Positions 4,911 to 53,589 of a stretch of DNA of 61,812 nucleotides are shown here, in pieces. The position numbers and the translations under genes are program-made. Every line of letters starts with the position of its first letter. Position 1 is the first letter of the stretch. Source of the DNA: a virus. The stretch spans positions 1-61,812 of the IMG/VR virus record IMGVR_UViG_3300035183_000056, one strand, 5' to 3'. The notes below the pieces were generated by a model. The model worked only from the letters and a program-made list of their open reading frames with translations, did not search any database and had not been told where the DNA came from.

Positions 4911-6128
4911 CTACAACCAACCGATTACTTCGTAACAATCAGTGTAAACTTCGGGAACTGACACTAAGGGCTGAGATAAAGATATAGTCGTTCCATCTGT
5001 TGCGGTGAAGTCCTGGTCAGGCATCAACTTAACACCATTCAACCATACATCCACGAAGCCGATCTTATAGGCTATGTTTATAGTGTTCTGACCATTGATT
5101 GCCCACCCATAGATTCTATTCTGGTATACAGTAGTCGTAGTCATGCTTTGGATTTGCATACCTTGGCCATCGTATACCAAATCCAGTACAGTTCCGGCTG
5201 GTATGGAGGACTGGGTCATGTCTAGACCAGGTATAGGCTTAACTTCCAGATAGGGTAAATTGTTTACCATAATGGTCAAGGGGTACCCGACGGCAGTAGC
5301 ATTATTCAGCTTAACTCTTAGACTAGCTCCCTCTACATAAGAAGTCCAAGAAGGTATGGACACTTCTATTGAACTTGGGGAGGGGCTTGTATCTAGCACG
5401 TATAGCAATCCAACACCATCTGTACCGTTATTTCCTTGGAAACCCTGAGTGCCCTGAGAACCTTGAGCCCCTTGGGTGCCTTGAAAACCTTGGTTACCTT
5501 GGAATCCCTGAAATCCTTGTGGTCCTTGAAAGCCCTGAGAACCTTGAGCCCCTTGGGTTCCTTGTGGTCCTTGAAAGCCCTGAGAACCTTGAGCCCCTTG
5601 GGTTCCTTGTGGTCCTTGAAAGCCCTGAGAACCTTGGACGCCCACGCCGTTGCTACCCTGGGAACCCTGGGACCCTTGCGGTCCTTGAGTACCTTGCGGT
5701 CCTTGAGTACCTTGCGGTCCTTGAGTACCTGAACCAGGGGGCCCTTGTAAACCTTGGGTACCCTGTGGTCCTTGAGGGCCTAGCAAGCCCGAGTCGTCAT
5801 AGGAAATAGGGTAGAGGAATATATCTTCATAAGCTGTAATTTCTTCCCACGTATGTTGATTACCGGCCAATTGAACCGGGTTTGGCGCCGTGTAAGATGT
5901 TAGACGATAGACCTTACCATACCAGGCGTGGTTAGGGTTAGATGGTATCCATATACCATTTATAGGGAAGAGAGGGTTGCCAGGCTCATAATATGATAGA
6001 ATTATGGGGTACCGCGTGTGATTGATTGGGTGGTCTATGTTAAGAACAACTGGGTTGTCAATATCCATGTTACGGATATCAGCCAGGTAGTTCATTTCTT
6101 GTAAAAACAAAGTTAGTCTAGGTTGCAT
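4911..6128 (-). CDS. Collagen-like tail fibre protein, 405 aa
   Basis: Residues 1-115 form a globular, probably particle-attached head. Residues about 118-240 are a collagen-like run of Gly-x-x triplets rich in Gln (QGPQGTQG, QGFQGPQG), which should form a trimeric rod. Residues about 245-405 are a beta-rich C-terminal domain ending YTDCYEVIGWL, probably trimerising or receptor-binding. The gene lies among fibre genes. Collagen-like rods are known in phage fibres; the Gln-rich form instead of Pro-rich is notable. Attachment site and receptor are unknown. Confidence 0.75.
   Translation of the reverse strand: MQPRLTLFLQEMNYLADIRNMDIDNPVVLNIDHPINHTRYPIILSYYEPGNPLFPINGIWIPSNPNHAWYGKVYRLTSYTAPNPVQLAGNQHTWEEITAYEDIFLYPISYDDSGLLGPQGPQGTQGLQGPPGSGTQGPQGTQGPQGTQGPQGSQGSQGSNGVGVQGSQGFQGPQGTQGAQGSQGFQGPQGTQGAQGSQGFQGPQGFQGFQGNQGFQGTQGAQGSQGTQGFQGNNGTDGVGLLYVLDTSPSPSSIEVSIPSWTSYVEGASLRVKLNNATAVGYPLTIMVNNLPYLEVKPIPGLDMTQSSIPAGTVLDLVYDGQGMQIQSMTTTTVYQNRIYGWAINGQNTINIAYKIGFVDVWLNGVKLMPDQDFTATDGTTISLSQPLVSVPEVYTDCYEVIGWL
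5428..5790. repeat. Short tandem repeats coding the collagen-like rod
   Basis: Units of 9, 18 and 45 bp with near-identical sequence (for example CTTGAGCCCCTTGGGT and CTTGTGGTCCTTGAAAGC) recur in frame. They encode Gly-x-Gln triplets and could change copy number by slippage without shifting the frame. Confidence 0.75.
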
Positions 6129-6623: not shown

Positions 6624-9611
6624 TTAATCGTGTATAACAATAAGTTTGGTGTCTGAGATACTCAATGTACCATCTGACAGATTGGACTTGGCTGCCAACA
6701 ATTGGTACGTGTAGCTTGCAGCATAATATATGGGCGTAGTATGAATTAGAGTAAGACCTACGTTCATGTTACCTATAATTGCATCTCCTTGACCACGTGT
6801 TATAGCAACCCGGACACCTTCGAACATAAGCTTGAAGTACCCGTCGTAGTCTACCATAGATAACCCCATAGAACAGCTAGCAATAGCTACCATAAAAGTT
6901 GTACTAGCAGAGGCTGCAACCACAGCCGTACCGATAGTATGGTTATTGATATCGGTTATGCCTGATATGTCGGCAAAGGCCCATTCGTCGGCGTATATGT
7001 TGGCTGAGGAGCCCGTTGCTCCTTGAACCCCTTGGGTCCCCTGGAACCCTTGAAAGCCCTGGAAGCCCTGGAATCCCTGGAAGCCCTGGAATCCCTGGAA
7101 CCCTTGAAAGCCCTGGAAGCCCTGGAAGCCCTGGAAGCCCTGGAAGCCCTGGAATCCCTGTGGCCCTTGTGGTCCCCTAATAATGATTAACTCGTCCCTT
7201 TTCATTAACCGGGATTTGGATAAACCACATAAGAACGTATAAAATAGGAGATCTCCAGATATGGTTATGTCCGTTTCGAGTAGATGGTCTGTTATACCAT
7301 TTGAGGTCGTAACCGTGCAATGGTCTTTGTACAAGTAGTCCGTACCAACAAACGTCAAAGTGTTGTCTACTCGGTCCTCTACATCAACAATCGCCATTTG
7401 ATAAGGCTGTACGATAGGGAAAGGGCCAGTACTAGGTAGCCACACATGAAGGTCTCCTTCTACTATCTCAACCGAATACCCGGGCTTGGAGACCGACTTG
7501 AACTGGGTAATTTCTACCCAACCGTCAGTGGGGTTATCGGCGAAACTGATGGTCCCTGACCCGAGTGTATACTGTGACCTATGAGCATACTTATTATTTA
7601 CCATCACCAATAGGTCATCCGGATGGCTAGCCATATCGCTCGGTATGGTATATGAAGTAGCCCCAGTAGCAGCAAAGGTCTGCCTAGCACACTGGATTGT
7701 GGTTCCCACATCCGCATGTTCCTGATAACAAATGATATCCACTAAGGTCCCTGTTGTAGCAGCCGCAAATAGCACTACTTGGTTAGTGGTTGGGTACCAT
7801 GTGAAAGCATTAGGGCCTAATAACTGACCATTCTTAAAGATCAAGATATAGCTCTTTCTAGGCACTTCAACTATGTTGAAGGTAGCCCCACCATCCCCTA
7901 CGAAGGTCAATACTACGGGCTGCAATCTGTTACCTTCGTAGTACCATCCTGCTGGGTCGGACCACATTGGTCCAGCGTCAAAGCCAGATACAGACGACAC
8001 AACCGGGTCAGCTTGGGAGGCCAAAACCAATATGTCCACCTTTTGGCCACTTGTTAGGCCGGTCTTGAAAGAGATTTTGTTACCGTCATAGACAGTGTAA
8101 TCGTTCTTACTCTTGTACAGACCGTTGACCAATACTACGGTGTCCCGCTTGTAGTTGATCGTTGACCCAGCTGTAAAGTCTCGTTGACCAGACGTGGCTA
8201 TATGGTAAGCCCTGCTGATAGTGGTGTTAGAATTCAATTCCTCAGCATTAGCCATTACCAAAAGGTTCACAGAACCAGTCGGGTTGGACGTAAAGGACAA
8301 TAGTGAACCAGTAATAGTGTAGGTAGAAGGCTCTTTAAGGGCGCCATTGACAAACGCTAGGACCATCGACGAACTAGATGGTATACTGGGTAATTGGAAC
8401 CCACTGGTCGTACCAGTAGCTGTGTATTCCGCTTCCCCTATCAACAAAGCCGAACCATCACTGGGGGTGGTGGTGAAGTAGACGAATGTTATCTTGGTAC
8501 CTGATGCTGGGATAGCTGAAACGTCAAAGGTAATGTCAGAAGATCCAAGCACGTACCTATTGGTTGGTTGCATCACACCAGATACAAACACCCAGAGTCG
8601 GGTGGAATGGCTAATGACATCTGACGGTATGTCCGAAATGTCATAGACTGTAGCCCCAGTCGAAGTTATTGACTTGAAGTTCGGAACCATAGTCGAACCG
8701 CCGGAAGGCGACAGCTCCCTAGAGAAACTGTTCTTACCAGCTAGTAAAGCGTATTGTGCGGGCACACCTGACCTTGACGGTAACCACTTAGTGTTGGAGC
8801 GCCATATAGCGATACGGCTATCACCAGTTAAACTAGTGAACGGCTTCTCCAGTACATTAAACGTAAGGCTGTCCTTAGCGTAAGACGCTTTTCTGGATTC
8901 GCCAAACCCAGGACCACCTACTACTTGCAGCAAAACGGTCTCGCCGTCATCCAACCATAGACCTTGGGTACCTATATCAAGGACAAACTCACTGGCGCTT
9001 ACCACAGAATCCGCGGGGCCGCAATAAACCCTAGAATGCTCTGAGAATGCCCATTCAAATCCACTGACCCCAGATTTAACGGCCATGATAGGTCTAACAG
9101 TCAAGTCTTGATTCAACTGACCATCAGAAACCATTACAACGTTTTCCAGAGCTTCTGAAGGCTTAACTAACGACCGTACACTAGAGCAGCTAGGTAAGCC
9201 GTTGCTATCCACAACGGTAACGTTGATAATCTCACCCAATCTGCCTGCCATCACCAGAACGTATAGCTTGAGGCCGAATTCAGTAGTTTTCTGGTATACC
9301 GTATTGAGATAGCCGTGTGCAAATAAAGCCCCAGACCGTGTGTACAGACCTATTTCAGATACCACCTTAGTACCACTGCTAGGCCACCCAGGAGGTATAA
9401 CTAGCGTACACTTAATAGTAGAAGGACCAACGGTTTCAATGTTCTGAATATCCGCTTCATACCATATAGTACCTTCCAAGGCAGTATCAGCTACAGATAA
9501 GGTAACGCCTGTTTGCTCTGTCACTGCAAAGGACGTGAGATCGAGTTTGAAACCACCAGCTTCAACATCGGTCATAGCGGTTAAGCCAAGGTCGGTTGTT
9601 AAGATAGGCAT
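6624..9611 (-). CDS. Large tail fibre protein with collar-type N-terminus and collagen-like rod, 995 aa
   Basis: Residues 1-135 match the phage tail-collar fibre N-terminus ([10 protein letters not shown]..., [10 protein letters not shown]), which anchors fibres to the baseplate in P2-like and many other myoviruses. Residues about 310-750 contain several repeats of a beta-rich unit with a 'V-F-V-N-G...Y...G..I.F' pattern. Residues about 815-865 are an almost pure run of Gly-Phe-Gln triplets ending in [10 protein letters not shown], followed by a beta-rich C-terminal domain of about 125 residues. The gene follows the gpI-like baseplate gene, the usual place for the main host-recognition fibre. 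Confidence 0.8.
7018..7172. repeat. Nine-base tandem repeats coding (Gly-Phe-Gln)n
   Basis: About 15 in-frame copies of a 9-bp unit (CCCTGGAAG, CCCTGGAAT or CCTTGAAAG on the plus strand) encode the GFQ rod. Near-perfect identity suggests recent expansion and a length that can change by slippage or recombination. Confidence 0.8.
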
Positions 9612-46782: not shown

Positions 46783-47109
46783 TTAGTCAGGCATCGGGTG
46801 AGAGACACGGCACTTGTCACAGTAATAGACTGAATCTCCATTCGCTATCATAGCCGAACCCATAGCTGTGTTACACTTAGGACAAACCCCGACTTTATCA
46901 TTCACGAAGGCTGACTCAGACAGCAACGGTCCGAGGTCGGAGGTGCTTACCGAGGTAGGGACCAAAGCTAGGGGATTAAAAATATTACCCTTGGTTTTCT
47001 TAAGCTGGCCTTTCCTTGGATTCTTATGCTTATTAGGCGCTGCCACAGCATGAGAAGCAGCAGAAGTGCTTTGGGATACCGTGTCCAAGGGGTTGAAAAT
47101 CTTTTTCAT
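46783..47109 (-). CDS. Small zinc-ribbon protein, 108 aa
   Basis: The C-terminal 40 residues have a zinc-ribbon: C-P-K-C-N-T-A-M ... Y-Y-C-D-K-C-R-V-S-H. The N-terminal part is basic and repeats the short I-F-N-P-L phrase twice (residues 4-8 and about 45-49). The ATG at 47109 follows AAGGTGACAAGT and is preferred to the GTG at 47118. It lies between terminase and portal; a terminase-portal accessory role is possible but unproven. Confidence 0.62.
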   Translation of the reverse strand: MKKIFNPLDTVSQSTSAASHAVAAPNKHKNPRKGQLKKTKGNIFNPLALVPTSVSTSDLGPLLSESAFVNDKVGVCPKCNTAMGSAMIANGDSVYYCDKCRVSHPMPD

Positions 47110-47151
47110 ACTTGTCACCTTACAGCCTGAATAATTGAATTGTGCCTTAAA

Positions 47152-48720
47152 TTACTTTAACCCTTTGATAAAGCCCAGGGATGATATACTGGTGTTGGAG
47201 GCTGTAGGCATAGATGCTGAGCCACCGCTATTGGATAAGCCCTTCACATACGCACACTTGGTTATGTCTACTCGCACCAGTTTCTCTTTCTCTGGTGTTT
47301 TCCACAGCGCCGCATTCTCAGGATCTAGCAGTAAGCTAGTTGCTAAAGCTGAGGCTCGGAATAAGTCGTCTGTGAGGTTGTCCCCCTTTAAGACTTGACT
47401 GCCTGTATCTTGGACGGTCAAGCATTGAAGGACAAAGTGGTCAACCGGTCTGGTCTTAAAGCAGTTAGGGTAACTATTATGGTCATACTTAAGGACTTCC
47501 TCAACGGAATCAGACTCTAATTGCGGAAGCACGACCTGCTCATCCTCCATGTACGACTTAAATTGCTGGAGGTCTGCGTACTTTACGCTGTAGGTCTTGG
47601 TTTGTATAGCAGCATCTTCCTCGGCATCAGATAGGATCTTGATAGATTGCCAACGGTCTGCACCCAACAACTGGACATTACGGTCGTCAATAATGGGCAG
47701 TATAATCTCCTCATAAATCCTCGAATAGTTAAGTCGCATCCCAGGTAGAGGCTGTATTTCGACCAAAAGGTCTATGATAACTACCTTCTTTTCCTCAGCG
47801 TCTGGATCTTGAAGCCTAGCCACACAACAAGCAAAGCTATTATTAACGTGGCCTGCATCTAAAGCCAACACACAAGGCTTACCAGACTTTTTCAACTTAT
47901 TTATATAAGCATACCTGGTAATTGTCTTATCTTTAGCCTTCTTGGTCGCATAGGTAATGCTGATGGGGTTGCGTTTCCCTACAATGCAATTGGAAACTAC
48001 ATCGGAAGAGCCAATAAAGGGATTGGATGTGAGTGGGGGTTGTGCACCAAAGTCACGCATAGCATTTACGGGGTTCTTCTTAAAGTAGCCCTGAATAACC
48101 TTGGACTTAAATGGGAGCTTAGGGTTCATTTCCCAAGTGGCTTTGTTTAAGCCAAAGATAACGTCACTTCCTTGGGCATGCTTAACCAATTCAGTGATCT
48201 TGTCTCTAACACTAGATGGACTACTGATATTGAAAAAGTATCCGGTTGGCACATCGTTAAACCCACGTTTTAACAAGGCCTCAGCCTCACCTCTAACAGT
48301 AGCCAAACTGTTCTCAATAGCCGTATAGACTTCTTCCGCGGAGGTCTTGATCTTCTTAGAGTTGGCCTCGTTGTCAAACCACCCTAATTCATCAATGGAT
48401 CCGAATACACGGGTTCGACCACGGAGAATTCGTTTGTCTGGTCCTGCAGGGTATATGAATAAGCGCCTATGCTTATACAGTAGAAAGGTATCTTTGAATT
48501 TAAAGAGGTCTTCTCCAGTGCGGGCAGCTTGTTCAGTCAACATAGCATGGTAATCGCAGTTGTGGACATTCACGCCATTAGCATAGTAGTTGTGGTGATT
48601 AGCAACTTCCAAGTCGTACACATGCTTGACGCCCACGCTCTTAACGGAGGCTACCTTAGACAGTGTAACTGGTTTACCATCTACCATAATGGTTTTAGTA
48701 GTCATAGCATCTTTCACCAT
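47152..48720 (-). CDS. Large terminase subunit, C-terminal half with C-terminal split intein (IntC)
   Basis: Residues 1-54 are an intein C-terminal fragment: VKHVYDLEVANHHNYYANGV followed by NVHN and then Cys55, the +1 residue of the C-extein. The extein continues with Walker B near residues 105-111 (VFGSIDELGWF), then a nuclease domain with Asp in VLALDAGHVN and in LLGADRWQS. Alone it lacks Walker A, so trans-splicing with the product of 49655-50797 is needed for a working motor. ATG at 48720 or 48705 is possible. The stop is followed by the zinc-ribbon gene. Confidence 0.88.
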   Translation of the reverse strand: MVKDAMTTKTIMVDGKPVTLSKVASVKSVGVKHVYDLEVANHHNYYANGVNVHNCDYHAMLTEQAARTGEDLFKFKDTFLLYKHRRLFIYPAGPDKRILRGRTRVFGSIDELGWFDNEANSKKIKTSAEEVYTAIENSLATVRGEAEALLKRGFNDVPTGYFFNISSPSSVRDKITELVKHAQGSDVIFGLNKATWEMNPKLPFKSKVIQGYFKKNPVNAMRDFGAQPPLTSNPFIGSSDVVSNCIVGKRNPISITYATKKAKDKTITRYAYINKLKKSGKPCVLALDAGHVNNSFACCVARLQDPDAEEKKVVIIDLLVEIQPLPGMRLNYSRIYEEIILPIIDDRNVQLLGADRWQSIKILSDAEEDAAIQTKTYSVKYADLQQFKSYMEDEQVVLPQLESDSVEEVLKYDHNSYPNCFKTRPVDHFVLQCLTVQDTGSQVLKGDNLTDDLFRASALATSLLLDPENAALWKTPEKEKLVRVDITKCAYVKGLSNSGGSASMPTASNTSISSLGFIKGLK

Positions 48721-49602
48721 TACCTTTCATTACCAAATACCTGAATGTAAAACCCTGCCTTCGACAAGCTTGACGCTTGGCTTCATTCGAGGCAAAACCT
48801 GCCTTATAGGTGTAGGCGCTCTTCACCTCTATTATGAGGTTTAGGTGGGGTATGAAAATGTCCGGATAATAAACTCGGTTGCAGCCTTTGTACGAATAGC
48901 TGATTCGTGGTATATCTGCACCGCGTCCACATTCTATCTGAGACGGCTTGAACCTCCCATACTTTTGCAGGTAATCTAAAGCCTGTGGCTCGAAGCCTTG
49001 CACCATCACCGTGCGACCCCCCAACTTATAAGGCTTAAGGACTTCCATACTTGCTCGGCTCTTGTCGAACAGTTCCTTATTCTGGAGAGCATGATTTACT
49101 CCATACTTTTTCTCATGGTCTTGCGTATCTTTTGCTTAACCGTAGGTAGTTGGGTTGTCCATTCTACACCGTATTCCTTCAAATGCTTCTCCTTCCTCCT
49201 TTCCGTAGCGCAACCTGGACATCCTACACCCTTGGTAAGGTTGTTAGGGTAAGGTTCCCACTTATGGCCGCACCGCAAGCATTCTGCCCTTATAGGAGTG
49301 TTCATGCTCTTAAAAGGTTCGAGCAACTCAATTTGTCGGCTCTTCAGCCTCGCTCGTCTAATGAAGGCTTCGGTGCTTTGCCTGGTAGAGGCGGCGATTT
49401 TAGATGCCCTGGTGCACATACACCCATAACTGGATCGGATCCACGCCAGGTTTCGGAGTTCAGAGTTTCCGCAATCCAAAACACTTGACCAGGAAGACTT
49501 TTGGTTTCCAGCCAGTTTTCTCCGAAAAAACTTTCAGTATTTTGAAGGAGGGTCGGCTTTTCATCCCCCCATCGCTAGATGTTTCATTTTACCAATGTCC
49601 AT
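48695..49602 (-). pseudogene. Decayed Vsr-like homing endonuclease gene between the terminase halves
   Basis: The pieces encode a free-standing homing endonuclease of the Vsr/EDxHD-like type found in fractured genes. They include zinc-binding C-x-x-C parts (AECLRCGHKW, GVGCPGCATER), an E-Y-G-V-E-W-T-T-Q repeat, and the nuclease core (VYYPDIFIPHLNLIIEVKSA). At least two single-base frameshifts break it: in the A5 run at 49107-49111 (an extra A restores RKKYGVNHALQ) and the T4 run at 49478-49481 (one T fewer restores KCLDCGNSEL). A G6 run at 49565-49570 may hold a third. A GAGGTGA site precedes ATG 49602. Confidence 0.75.
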
Positions 49603-49654
49603 AAATCACCTCAGAAGTGCAGACATCAACAAATTACTATTGTCCTGCGTCCTG

Positions 49655-50797
49655 TTATAAGGTAACTACGTAGTCCTCCTCAGTGAGGTCTTTGATTCGT
49701 TTCCATACGATAGACTCACCATCAGGCCCCAGGCAATGAACAAGGTGATCATCAGTACCTGTTATGGAAGAGCCATTAGACAGAGTAGCCTCTTTGCACT
49801 CTTTGAAGCCATTATCGTAGACCTCAAGAACTTTCTCTTGTCCTTCAATCGTCTTTACCTCGTCCCCAACTTGAATTCCCTGAATGACCTTTGTGGATCC
49901 GTCAGCCAAAGCGATAAGAGTGTCCTCGGCTATGCAAAACCAAGGGCTATCTGCTATGTTACCGTAGAATGGATCCCATAAATTGTCTTTTGCTTGCTGA
50001 AAAGTCAGGGCTACAAAAGTACCATGCAACATAGTCGAAGCTTTGAGGTCATAAACCTTGTTAGGGTTTTGAAGCATCAACACTCTATGGGTTAGATAGG
50101 ACGCCTGGTCAGCCACTAAAGCGGATTTCCCACTACGTTGACCAGCGGAAATAGCTTCTTCCTGGTAAGGTTTCAATAAGCCTTTAGCTACAAGCTTGGA
50201 CTTAGTCGCTTTGCAGTGAGGACAAACACCATTCTCCAATAAAGCTACTTTACGCTCCAACTTGGCTAGAGAGTCGTCTACTTTATGGTCGTGAATAACC
50301 CATTGAACATCTGAGCAACGCGGGCACCACTCTGCAAATACCTGAATACCTATTAGAGCCTGCATCAAGTAAGGCTTGGTATTGAGGAATTTGTCAGAAA
50401 TACAGAACTGGTAGAAGTTGGGTGCTTTAGGGAAGTCTCGATCATTGACCGTTAAGTCGGGAGCTACGACGCCAGAGGCTTTAATAGCCGACTTAACATC
50501 CTTGTAGATGTTAAAGTCAGCTTCGTTAACGGGTACATAGATGTCCCCCTTCTTTTCAAAAGACCCTTTCAGAAAGTTGAAAGCTTCTAGGTCGCTCTTA
50601 GTTGGACGATCTTGAATAGCTTTTCCTGACTTCGGCACTTTCTTCTTTTTAAGATCTGCTTGGACCTCATCTTGGTGAGACCTGTAACCCTTACAGACGT
50701 AAAGACTCGACTTTTTGGTATCATCGCAAGACCAATACCTGGTACAGGACATGCAGTTCTTCAACGAAGATCGGCTACTGCCTAGTATATCAAACAT
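49655..50797 (-). CDS. Large terminase subunit, N-terminal half with N-terminal split intein (IntN)
   Basis: The first 287 residues are the N-extein: an unusual Cys-rich start (NCMSCTRYWSC), a C-x-x-C pair, then Walker A (ISAGQRSGKSALVADQ) near residue 217 and a FVALTFQQAKDNLWDPF segment. The last 93 residues are IntN: C-I-A-E-D-T-L-I-A-L (block A), VIQGIQVGDEVKT and the block B T-G-T-D-D-H-L-V-H. The frame ends at TAA just after YVVTL, so the intein is truly split. The break between Walker A and B leaves each half inactive alone. Confidence 0.9.
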   Translation of the reverse strand: MFDILGSSRSSLKNCMSCTRYWSCDDTKKSSLYVCKGYRSHQDEVQADLKKKKVPKSGKAIQDRPTKSDLEAFNFLKGSFEKKGDIYVPVNEADFNIYKDVKSAIKASGVVAPDLTVNDRDFPKAPNFYQFCISDKFLNTKPYLMQALIGIQVFAEWCPRCSDVQWVIHDHKVDDSLAKLERKVALLENGVCPHCKATKSKLVAKGLLKPYQEEAISAGQRSGKSALVADQASYLTHRVLMLQNPNKVYDLKASTMLHGTFVALTFQQAKDNLWDPFYGNIADSPWFCIAEDTLIALADGSTKVIQGIQVGDEVKTIEGQEKVLEVYDNGFKECKEATLSNGSSITGTDDHLVHCLGPDGESIVWKRIKDLTEEDYVVTL

Positions 50798-50808
50798 GGT
50801 GTAAACCT

Positions 50809-51771
50809 CTATTCATGTCTGGATCGTTTTACTCCTGGCCCGACAGATGGCTTCTTAGGTCCACCTTTTGGCTTACCGTCTGATCCTTTTTGAGCCTCTT
50901 GTCTTTGCTGGTAACTTGAAGCCCCGTGCTCTTTAGCTCTATCAGACCTACGGACTACGTAAGCCTCAATTTCCTTGATGTACTTCCTGTGGGCATCCGT
51001 CTTGTCGGACTTCTCCAAGGCCCTGATAGAATAGTCAGCCATTTTGTCAATCATTGCCTTCATGTACAAAGCTTTGTACTGTTTAGGCAACTTAAGTCTG
51101 CGTAAGAAGAAGTACATGACGTCCAACCGCGTCATCTCCTTCACCACGTCAAGCACCCCCTTGTCCATTTCTACGTCCATTTTTAGGCCATCTGCCATGG
51201 CAGCCTGGACATAAGAACTAGCAGCTTCGTAGGACATGATAGAGGGGGCTAACCCCCTAAGGATTAAATTGCTTAGCTTGCGTGTAGTATCATCCGTTTG
51301 GTCTATCACAGCCTTTAAGAGCGTATCTGGAACTGTGACGGCATTAGCTACCGGCACCTTAGCCACTTCTGCTGGTGGCTCCTCATAGTTTATGCTGAAA
51401 TCCGGCAAGACACGGGACCTAAGTTTAGACTTGGACACCCTAGCTTTCTTGGCCTTGACCTTAGATTGTTGCGGTCTAGCCCTAGAGTCTTTGGAGTATA
51501 CAGCGTGGTCTTTCTGGTCCTTGTGTCCTTTATTGGACTTAGACTTGGATGGTTTCTCAGACCGATCTTTAGCTTTGTCTTTTGAGGTCTTAGAACCCTT
51601 CTTACGGTGTGTCCCTTTGGCAGCGGCGGCGGCAATAGCCGTACTAATATCATCCGCCTCAGACATACCCTTTATCATGTCGTCATAGTCCGCATCGGTT
51701 AGGCCGAGAATCCCCTCCGGGACTTCTTCTGAATAACCGGGCGGGTATTTCTTTTTAGGCTTCTTAATCAT
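50809..51771 (-). CDS. Basic protein upstream of terminase, 320 aa
   Basis: Residues 50-125 are Lys/Ser/Arg-rich and probably disordered. Residues about 140-270 are helical (MTRLDVMYFFLRRLKLPKQY), and the C-terminus is again basic (KPKGGPKKPSVGPGVKR). Position directly before the large terminase and basic nature suggest a small terminase subunit or DNA-binding packaging factor, but there is no clear helix-turn-helix. Function unproven. Confidence 0.55.
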   Translation of the reverse strand: MIKKPKKKYPPGYSEEVPEGILGLTDADYDDMIKGMSEADDISTAIAAAAAKGTHRKKGSKTSKDKAKDRSEKPSKSKSNKGHKDQKDHAVYSKDSRARPQQSKVKAKKARVSKSKLRSRVLPDFSINYEEPPAEVAKVPVANAVTVPDTLLKAVIDQTDDTTRKLSNLILRGLAPSIMSYEAASSYVQAAMADGLKMDVEMDKGVLDVVKEMTRLDVMYFFLRRLKLPKQYKALYMKAMIDKMADYSIRALEKSDKTDAHRKYIKEIEAYVVRRSDRAKEHGASSYQQRQEAQKGSDGKPKGGPKKPSVGPGVKRSRHE

Positions 51772-52345
51772 CTAAGTATCTCCTAACTCTGCGTGTATTG
51801 CGGTCATATATGCCAGCCCTACAGGCCATCCTAACGACCAAGTCTTTTTTGACTACCCCTTTCATAGGTCTCCACTTAGCCTTTAAGGCTACGTACAAGT
51901 AACCAGTCTTAGGGCTTAATACCATAACTCCTATCCCTGTTCCAGCCAAGTCTGATTGTAACGTAGGCCGTAGTTTTTCCCAGGTAGGGTGGCTCACTAC
52001 AAAGTACATTCTATTGCAGTAGTCCACATAGGAATTCCATTTCTTATCTGCAAGATAATCTGCTGGACTGCTCTTTATTTCCAATAGTACAATCTCGGAC
52101 CGCAGATTTAAGGCTAAAGCGTCAGCCCTTAACCTACCCCAGGCTATCAACCCCAGTTCCAGGTGTACAGAGTACCGTTTGTGTCGCCAGAAGGAAATGA
52201 CGGCTTCTTTTAGGGTTTGCGTTACGTCCTTGCGATTTTGTTTTTGAGTATCCTTCTGCTGTTGCTGTTGCTCAGCCTGTCCAAGCTGTTTAGCCTTCCC
52301 TGGCTTATTTCGCTTGCGCTTTGACTTAGTTACCGTATTGGTCAT
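51764..52345 (-). CDS. MmcB-like PD-(D/E)xK-fold protein, 193 aa
   Basis: After a basic, Gln-rich N-terminus, residues about 65-115 contain GRLRADALALNLRSEIVLLE followed by I-K-S-S-P-A-D-Y and WNSYVDYCNRMYFVV. This matches the MmcB family of bacterial DNA-repair-associated proteins with a restriction-enzyme-like core (Asp ... E-x-K). It may cut or bind damaged DNA. The ATG at 52345 has GGAG eight bases upstream; a GTG at 52348 is an alternative. It overlaps the GT2 stop. Confidence 0.75.
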   Translation of the reverse strand: MTNTVTKSKRKRNKPGKAKQLGQAEQQQQQKDTQKQNRKDVTQTLKEAVISFWRHKRYSVHLELGLIAWGRLRADALALNLRSEIVLLEIKSSPADYLADKKWNSYVDYCNRMYFVVSHPTWEKLRPTLQSDLAGTGIGVMVLSPKTGYLYVALKAKWRPMKGVVKKDLVVRMACRAGIYDRNTRRVRRYLDD

Positions 52346-53589
52346 CACAAATTCTCCAATGGGGTATGATACCCAGGTATAAGGGGTTTATACGTTCTAT
52401 GGGCATAGATATTGGTCTGGTCTTCTGGGTTTTCCACAAACAAGTCTGAAAAACCCCGGTCATCCCACACCCAGTCGTTCAAACCAAGGTCCATAAATCG
52501 TGCATGAATTTTGGCATCATAGGCCCATCGTAAGTAACGAACGTGCCGCTGAATGTCTTGGTTTCTAAGGCGCTGGGTGTTCTGACCGTCATGGTACTGG
52601 ACATAACCAAAATGATCTACGTGCACCATGGTTGTAGCTAAGAAGGATCTTACCATTAGATCAAAGTCATCTGCCACGTGTAACTGTCTGTTATGGCCGC
52701 CTATGGCGAAATAATGATCCCGAGACCAAGCCCTCGCATGATTAGGGGCTGCAACTAAATGCCGAATAGTCTTGGCGTTTATACCAGGTGCGTTGACTAC
52801 TTGATAAAGTTGACCTTTGTGTGACTCCAGTCTATAGCTACCAAACCCGAAGCCCCACCCCTCACCGTACATCAATGGATTAAGGCACGTGTCTACTTCG
52901 GAGAAGTCAGTATAAAAGAAACCGCAGTCCTTGTTAGCACTATAGGCCAACACTAGAGCTTCCAAACAATGGTCGGTAAGAGCATCATCGTGGTCAAGCT
53001 CAACCAGTAGTTCACCGTTCGTCAAGGCAAATCCCCTGTACTTCACGTCGCCTATCACGCCAGAGTGAGGAGCACTGTAGACCTTAATCCTGTGGTCCCT
53101 ACATGCAAGGGCTTCCAAATCTCGTAGAGTTAGCCCACCGTTGTCACTGTCATCAATTAGTATCCATTCCCAGTTACTGTAGCTCTGGTTCATCAAAGAA
53201 TTGAATGCTCTATTGATGCGTGGACCAGTTCTATAGGTGGGTGTTACCACAGACACAAGCGGCACTTCAAACCTGGTACGTCGTGTCAATGCCATAATGT
53301 AGCAGTTGAAAGCTGTGGCACCCACTTCATCCCAAGATGTGTCGTTGGAAAAATGAATCCACTTCCTACGCACTTCAAAGGGAGCACCATTCAATCGGGT
53401 AAAGTCCGCTAGGTTTCCCACCGAAACTATGATGTCTGGACAGTCTCGTTGTAGGATTACGTTAAGGTCTACATCATTGGAATAACATTTGGTTACCATC
53501 ACCGCTGTTTCTTCACTTGGCGGGTTTGGTTGAGACTTTAAGTCCACTTGATCGGATACACCGAATAAACAAACCACTGGCTTTTCCAT
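52345..53589 (-). CDS. GT2-family glycosyltransferase, 414 aa
   Basis: Residues about 108-330 form a GT-A fold: PLVSVVTPTYRTGPRINRAF, WILIDDSDNGG, a DxD-like L-V-E-L-D-H-D-D-A-L-T near residue 198 and AWSRDHYFAIGGHN. It transfers a sugar from a nucleotide-sugar to an unknown acceptor (virion protein, DNA base or host glycan). The first 100 residues are a separate N-terminal domain (PVVCLFGVSDQVDL). Next to it are a zinc-ribbon protein and a methyltransferase, which may act together. The end of this gene overlaps the MmcB-like gene. Confidence 0.85.
   Translation of the reverse strand: MEKPVVCLFGVSDQVDLKSQPNPPSEETAVMVTKCYSNDVDLNVILQRDCPDIIVSVGNLADFTRLNGAPFEVRRKWIHFSNDTSWDEVGATAFNCYIMALTRRTRFEVPLVSVVTPTYRTGPRINRAFNSLMNQSYSNWEWILIDDSDNGGLTLRDLEALACRDHRIKVYSAPHSGVIGDVKYRGFALTNGELLVELDHDDALTDHCLEALVLAYSANKDCGFFYTDFSEVDTCLNPLMYGEGWGFGFGSYRLESHKGQLYQVVNAPGINAKTIRHLVAAPNHARAWSRDHYFAIGGHNRQLHVADDFDLMVRSFLATTMVHVDHFGYVQYHDGQNTQRLRNQDIQRHVRYLRWAYDAKIHARFMDLGLNDWVWDDRGFSDLFVENPEDQTNIYAHRTYKPLIPGYHTPLENL

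What the first reader, a model, noticed from the sequence alone, without database searches (positions are those of the whole stretch)
47152..50797. Large terminase gene fractured by a split intein, with the break between Walker A and Walker B
Seen: the N-half ends with an intein N-terminal fragment (C-I-A-E-D-T-L-I; T-G-T-D-D-H-L-V-H) and a stop. The C-half begins with an intein C-terminal fragment ending N-V-H-N before Cys. A nuclease gene lies between. Established: fractured genes with split inteins and Vsr-like endonucleases have been described in phage metagenomes. Here the DNA-packaging motor would require protein trans-splicing.
Basis: partly seen in the sequence, partly recalled or inferred. 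Interest (0 to 1): 0.78.

Follow-up and report, generated by a model that had tools for sequence, protein, structure and literature searches.

The report
Phage packaging motor in two halves
A large phage carries the gene for its DNA-packaging motor in two pieces that must be joined as proteins by a split intein, and related phages carry the same intein uncut, with other nucleases, or not at all, which gives a natural series for studying how such parasites split, spread and decay.

Summary
On the minus strand the large terminase (TerL) is broken between Walker A and Walker B: 287 N-extein residues plus a 93-residue IntN and a stop; then nuclease remnants; then an IntC of 49 residues (54 from the first ATG) and 468 C-extein residues. 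Joining the exteins gives 755 residues, collinear with intact TerLs across the junction. All splicing residues are present. The best reading is protein trans-splicing by a canonical split intein.

Relatives go further. Of 126 loci surveyed, 7 (5 distinct viruses) carry an insert at exactly this site. Four viruses are fractured. In two the nuclease belongs to the DUF7487 type (intact in L026, broken by two frame breaks in the window); in two it is an unrelated HNH-type nuclease (L118, L120). One virus, L033, has an uninterrupted 133-residue mini-intein. 118 loci are empty and one is incomplete. The five inteins form one clade, but at least five gains or losses are needed on the TerL tree. So the fracture is not an assembly error.

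Split inteins in TerL are already known (AceL-TerL, GOS-TerL), so this is a new variant of a known kind. Splicing itself is inferred, not shown.

The parts
49937..50797 (-). TerL N-extein, 287 aa, with Walker A GQRSGKS at about 50123-50143
   Evidence: phrog_17415 E 5.9e-75; collinear with intact TerLs PaBG and NCTB
49655..49936 (-). Intein N-fragment (IntN), 93 aa from Cys1 to the stop; TxxH motif TDDH
   Evidence: TIGR01445 and PF14890, below cut-off; 43-58% identical by tblastn to the same-site inteins of L026, L118, L120 and L033
48695..49564 (-). Remnant of a homing-type nuclease gene: possible start about 49564, treble-clef part 49096-49479, DUF7487/PD-(D/E)XK-like part 48695 to about 49113, in three stretches with frame breaks near 49,480 and near 49,105-49,113
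   Evidence: PF24308 DUF7487 E 5.3e-19, PF14311; phrog_559/681/15137; frame-aware alignment to the intact L026 homologue, 122 of 256 aligned residues identical
48559..48705 (-). Intein C-fragment (IntC), 49 aa from the start inferred by comparison with L118; the first in-frame ATG, 48720, would give 54 aa. It ends HN and is followed by Cys+1. The longer form overlaps the nuclease remnant
   Evidence: TIGR01443 above cut-off, PF14890 columns 117-155; alignment A5; start contexts
47152..48558 (-). TerL C-extein, 468 aa plus stop, starting CDYHAM; Walker B at about 48388-48408; rest of the ATPase and the nuclease domain
   Evidence: phrog_17415 E 1.2e-155; alignment with intact TerLs

Best explanation
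A canonical class-1 split intein of 93 + 49 residues sits in TerL between Walker A and Walker B. The halves are translated separately from one operon. IntN and IntC would associate into a HINT fold, and Cys1, the TxxH histidine, the C-terminal Asn and Cys+1 would carry out trans-splicing, giving a 755-residue TerL and removing the intein. Neither half alone has a complete ATPase site, so packaging would depend on the reaction. The DNA between the halves held a homing endonuclease that spread the element to empty TerL alleles at this conserved site; in the window that gene is now broken, so this copy would be splicing-competent but no longer self-mobile. Shown here: the anatomy, conserved catalytic residues, precise empty alleles, recurrence in other viruses, nuclease decay. 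Inferred: splicing, dependence of packaging on it, past homing.
For: (1) The joined exteins align with intact TerLs without a gap at the junction (SPWF|C.YH against SPWF|Q/K/S.YH). (2) Cys1, TxxH, HN and Cys+1 are present in 5 of 5 same-site inteins; +1 is Cys in 7 of 7 occupied loci and in 1 of 114 loci scored empty by the script. (3) Three further viruses are fractured at the identical site: L026, L118, L120. (4) L033 has the uninterrupted form; its AlphaFold model has mean pLDDT 94, matches gp41-1 first (Foldseek E 4.9e-10, TM 0.84/0.87), and the split point maps to the loop between strands 89-92 and 99-118. (5) L120 against its empty relative L121: DNA matches run to the last base before the insert and resume around the +1 codon, which is TGT against ACT. 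(6) L118-L120 IntN: dN/dS about 0.09, rough because dS is near saturation. (7) No Rfam intron.
Against: No splicing, protein or RNA data. No structure of the window's own IntN-IntC pair was predicted; the model is of the uninterrupted homologue. Pfam hits to the intein halves stay below gathering scores. The host genome is a 61.8-kb fragment, so a second intact TerL elsewhere in it is not excluded; the window itself holds one match to the C-half. L001 may come from the same source as the window, so it is weak as an independent assembly.
Confidence: 0.9

Rival explanations
1. Two-chain terminase without splicing: the halves assemble non-covalently and the intein pieces are leftovers (compare the nucleotide reductase split by a homing endonuclease into two working peptides, mentioned in the introduction of PMC10448857, passage seen).
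For: The two ORFs are separate and each is intact. No splicing has been shown.
Against: All four catalytic positions are kept in 5 of 5 viruses, the intein is more conserved than the exteins between the most distant viruses, and L118-L120 IntN looks constrained. Leftovers should decay, as the nuclease has.
Confidence: 0.06
2. Assembly or sequencing error in an uninterrupted intein or TerL gene.
For: Relatives with an uninterrupted intein at this site exist: L033, L034, L046.
Against: Three other viruses (L026, L118, L120) have the same three-ORF plan; L001 matches over 6,713 bases with no difference. The stretch between the halves holds nuclease-coding DNA, not a simple gap.
Confidence: 0.01
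3. RNA-level removal: an intron between the intein halves is spliced from the transcript and one uninterrupted intein is made.
For: Phage introns carrying homing nucleases are common (established knowledge).
Against: No Rfam match at E up to 1 in 46,800-51,000 other than a chance microRNA-family hit below its threshold, and none at gathering score in the window. Plausible starts stand before IntC in four of four fractured loci, one of them GTG (L120), overlapping the nuclease end in most. IntN's own stop is at the canonical split point.
Confidence: 0.02

Closest known systems
Fractured genes with split inteins and an inserted endonuclease ORF (Dassa et al. 2009; paper not held, content recalled)
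   Same: Two gene halves carrying IntN and IntC with a homing-type nuclease ORF between them, in phage DNA; intein fold nearest to gp41-1, which I recall as one of that set.
   Different: Here the host protein is the TerL of PaBG-like jumbo phages; the nuclease in the window is broken; the same site holds two unrelated nuclease families and also an uninterrupted intein in other viruses.
AceL-TerL and GOS-TerL split inteins (passages of PMC11766414)
   Same: Naturally split inteins in a phage large terminase; AceL-TerL has Cys1 and Cys+1.
   Different: Those are atypically split, with IntN of 25 and 37 aa and IntC of 104 and 115 aa; this one is split at the canonical position, 93 + 49. Whether the insertion site is the same was not tested.
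Split PolB intein of Pseudomonas phage MIJ3 with an HNH nuclease between the halves (passages of PMC6892783)
   Same: Jumbo phage, split intein, HNH-type nuclease between the halves, as in L118 and L120.
   Different: The gene is DNA polymerase B, not TerL.
Uninterrupted inteins inside Walker A of TerL in JA13, HRDY3, Yen9-02, Afa-NA1, SNUABM_5 and Lu11
   Same: Same TerL family, inteins with HN ends.
   Different: Inserted between GQR and SGKS, not after SPWF; they form a separate clade from the five inteins at the window's site (support 100/100).

Membership tests
Split intein (class 1, canonical split) | Block A nucleophile Cys1, block B TxxH, C-terminal HN, Cys/Ser/Thr at +1 | tested here: met
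   C, TDDH, VHN, then C; 5 of 5 same-site inteins
Split intein (class 1, canonical split) | Two separate ORFs, broken at the usual endonuclease insertion point of inteins | tested here: met
   ORFs, stop at 49655; alignment to the uninterrupted L033 intein; loop between strands 89-92 and 99-118
Split intein (class 1, canonical split) | HINT fold of the associated pair | tested here: inconclusive
   Met for the uninterrupted homologue L033; the window's own pair was not folded
Split intein (class 1, canonical split) | Trans-splicing activity | not testable with these tools
   Needs expression
Fractured gene with homing endonuclease (Dassa type) | Endonuclease ORF between the IntN and IntC genes | tested here: met
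   a nuclease gene lies there, but in pieces; intact in L026
Fractured gene with homing endonuclease (Dassa type) | Endonuclease of the Vsr-like family | tested here: inconclusive
   DUF7487 plus treble clef; Foldseek 0 hits at E 0.001 or below on a low-confidence model
Fractured gene with homing endonuclease (Dassa type) | Nuclease able to cut the empty allele | not testable with these tools
   In the window the gene has two frame breaks
AceL/GOS-TerL atypically split inteins | Short IntN of about 25-37 aa | tested here: not met
   IntN is 93 aa
Group I or group II intron | Covariance-model match around the interruption | tested here: not met

The most novel reading that the evidence does not exclude
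The split intein at this site acts as a lasting platform whose nuclease is exchangeable: the same intein lineage has entered or left TerL at least five times, has taken on two unrelated homing nucleases (DUF7487-type and HNH-type) in its break, and exists split and unsplit, so that splitting and nuclease turnover run on separate clocks from the splicing domain.
Probability: 0.55. Interest if true: 0.65.

Novelty: new variant of a known kind. Interest (0 to 1): 0.52.

Why it matters
TerL is essential for packaging in tailed phages, so if this reading holds every infectious particle of this virus depends on protein trans-splicing. More generally, one insertion site now offers all states side by side: empty, unsplit, split with nuclease type 1 intact, split with type 1 decayed, and split with nuclease type 2. 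That makes the question of how split inteins arise, and how they persist after their nuclease dies, testable by comparison of natural alleles, and it supplies four natural split-intein pairs, 50-73% identical, for tests of cross-reactivity.

Tried and rejected
Intron: rejected. Assembly error: rejected. Intein at the window's site in isolated phages: none among the 16 named-phage loci in the survey; the inteins of JA13-like phages that first looked similar sit in Walker A. Cellular genomes: the one genome scan with the IntC-junction alignment gave 11 loci; none shows the TerL exteins beside the intein. Of 6 further viral loci from the same kind of search (L165-L170) none is at this site; L165 has a Walker A-site intein in a distant TerL. 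Four loci that the survey script scored as 'insert' (L019, L145, L160, L161) are artefacts of a partial query match: the sequence goes on in frame as TerL; I count them as empty. L110 was incomplete. Order of branching inside the intein clade is unresolved: holding window, L026 and L033 together was not rejected, p-AU 0.308, so the discordance rests on identity levels and occupancy, not on that topology. Nuclease fold: low-confidence model, no significant hit. Literature on same-site split and unsplit inteins: searches listed no paper that I recognised as on this site, but the library lacks Dassa 2009 and Carvajal-Vallejos 2012.

Full report
WHAT IS THERE. The window is a 61,812-base virus record from a contractile-tailed phage: tail sheath, baseplate wedge, DnaB-like helicase, NAD-dependent ligase and a portal next to the terminase. 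The gene order helicase - small gene(s) - TerL - small gene - portal recurs in jumbo phages of the PaBG kind, e.g. PaBG, JA13, Yen9-02 and SNUABM_5. On the minus strand TerL is in two ORFs. The first (50797..49655) is 287 residues of TerL up to SPWF followed by 93 residues of intein and a stop. The second (48720..47152) is an intein C-fragment ending NVHN followed by 468 residues of TerL starting CDYHAM. Walker A lies in the first half, Walker B and the nuclease domain in the second.

PRECISION OF THE BREAK. The joined exteins (755 residues) were aligned with 14 TerLs of named phages. The junction falls between conserved residues: window SPWF|CDYH, NCTB SPWF|KKYH, JA13 SPWF|QKYH, GR7B SYWF|REYH. 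Nothing is missing or duplicated there.

THE INTEIN. Cys1, TDDH and VHN are present and the next residue is Cys. The same lineage occurs uninterrupted in L033, from a 190,918-base record, as a 133-residue mini-intein; its model has mean pLDDT 94 and its best solved matches are gp41-1 and the Mtu RecA splicing domain. Aligned to it, IntN ends and IntC begins at the usual endonuclease insertion point, in a loop between strands 89-92 and 99-118.

THE NUCLEASE. Between the halves lie a treble-clef part and a DUF7487 part with the motif PD-...-EVK, in different frames. L026 has the homologue intact in one frame of 327 residues stop to stop. A frame-aware alignment (122 of 256 aligned residues identical) places frame breaks in the window near 49,480 and near 49,105-49,113. 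The TerL halves and the portal beside it are open throughout. The nuclease is therefore probably dead; two programmed frameshifts are possible but unlikely.

THE SITE IN OTHER VIRUSES. Loci came from pattern-based scans of the viral collection and from the phage collection; near duplicates are included. Of 126 loci examined, the script scored 114 empty, 11 insert and 1 incomplete. Four of the 11 are artefacts, read as empty (118 in all), leaving 7 loci from 5 viruses. These are: the window's virus (L001); L026, fractured with an intact DUF7487-type nuclease; L118 and L120, fractured with a different nuclease of 224-227 residues, matching HNH family phrog_2081 (E 9.2e-10 and 7.7e-12), in which IntN's stop overlaps the nuclease start as ATGA; and L033/L034/L046, uninterrupted and 99.97-100% identical to each other. 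Residue +1 is Cys in 7 of 7 occupied loci and in 1 of the 114 loci scored empty, where it is mostly Gln or Lys.

MOBILITY. Intein against TerL identity: window-L118 56.3 against 37.1%; window-L120 56.3 against 36.6%; L026-L118 50.0 against 38.6%; L026-L120 52.2 against 34.4%; L118-L033 51.9 against 36.3%; L120-L033 50.4 against 33.2%; L118-L120 73.2 against 49.7%; window-L026 50.0 against 46.4%; but window-L033 48.9 against 50.1% and L026-L033 44.3 against 45.5%, which show no such excess (all ten pairs). On a TerL tree of 116 rows the nearest kin of each carrier include empty loci (L120 with L121, 85% identical; L033 with L044; L026 with L054/L056/L089; window with L091, 63%), and at least 5 changes between empty and occupied are needed. 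The five inteins are one clade, 100/100, apart from the Walker A-site inteins. L120 against L121 shows an exact insertion plus a changed +1 codon. This fits repeated horizontal gain, or precise loss, at one conserved site. The order inside the intein clade is not resolved, so direction (split from unsplit, or the reverse) stays open.

HOW IT MOST LIKELY WORKS. Three cistrons are translated in order from one transcript (inferred from order and overlaps); IntN and IntC find each other and splice; TerL of 755 residues is made; packaging proceeds. The nuclease, where intact, would cut empty alleles in mixed infections and be copied in with the intein. In the window only the splicing part is kept by need.

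WHAT IS KNOWN. TerL split inteins AceL-TerL and GOS-TerL are in print, with short IntN (passages of PMC11766414). The TaPaz paper calls terminases a common target of inteins and cites Dassa 2009 among its sources (passages, PMC8228797). MIJ3 has a split PolB intein with an HNH nuclease (passages, PMC6892783). I could not read Dassa 2009, so what it says on terminases or on same-site split and unsplit pairs is not checked. The kind is known; the canonical split in this TerL family, the decayed nuclease, and two unrelated nucleases at one split site are what I did not find in the searches named under Tried and rejected.

Noticed in passing
L033 5968-11598 (IMGVR_UViG_3300025288_000012): One TerL reading frame of 1,877 residues holds three uninterrupted inteins, one mini and two large, with LAGLIDADG_3 matches in the protein; the neighbouring DnaB-like helicase gene also seems to hold an intein.
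   Followed up: partly
L005, L006, L007, L009, L010, L012 (TerL genes): Six named phages carry uninterrupted inteins inside Walker A of TerL, between GQR and SGKS, a second intein site in the same motor; annotated only as terminase or hypothetical protein.
   Followed up: partly
L036 3867-5096 (IMGVR_UViG_3300001592_000270): A free-standing nuclease of the same treble-clef plus DUF7487 type sits about 1 kb upstream of an intein-free TerL: a candidate for a nuclease that targets the neighbouring gene.
   Followed up: no
L020 2923-3426 (PaBG) and L022 2578-3423 (GR7B): Stand-alone relatives of the window's nuclease, 42-44% identical over its C-terminal part, elsewhere in two jumbo phages with empty TerL sites.
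   Followed up: no
window 4911-6128 and 6624-9611: Collagen-like repeats in one protein (Pfam Collagen) and matches to tail-fibre and collagen-like tail families in the C-terminal part of another.
   Followed up: no
window 52345-53589: A family-2 glycosyltransferase lies between the helicase and the terminase genes.
   Followed up: no
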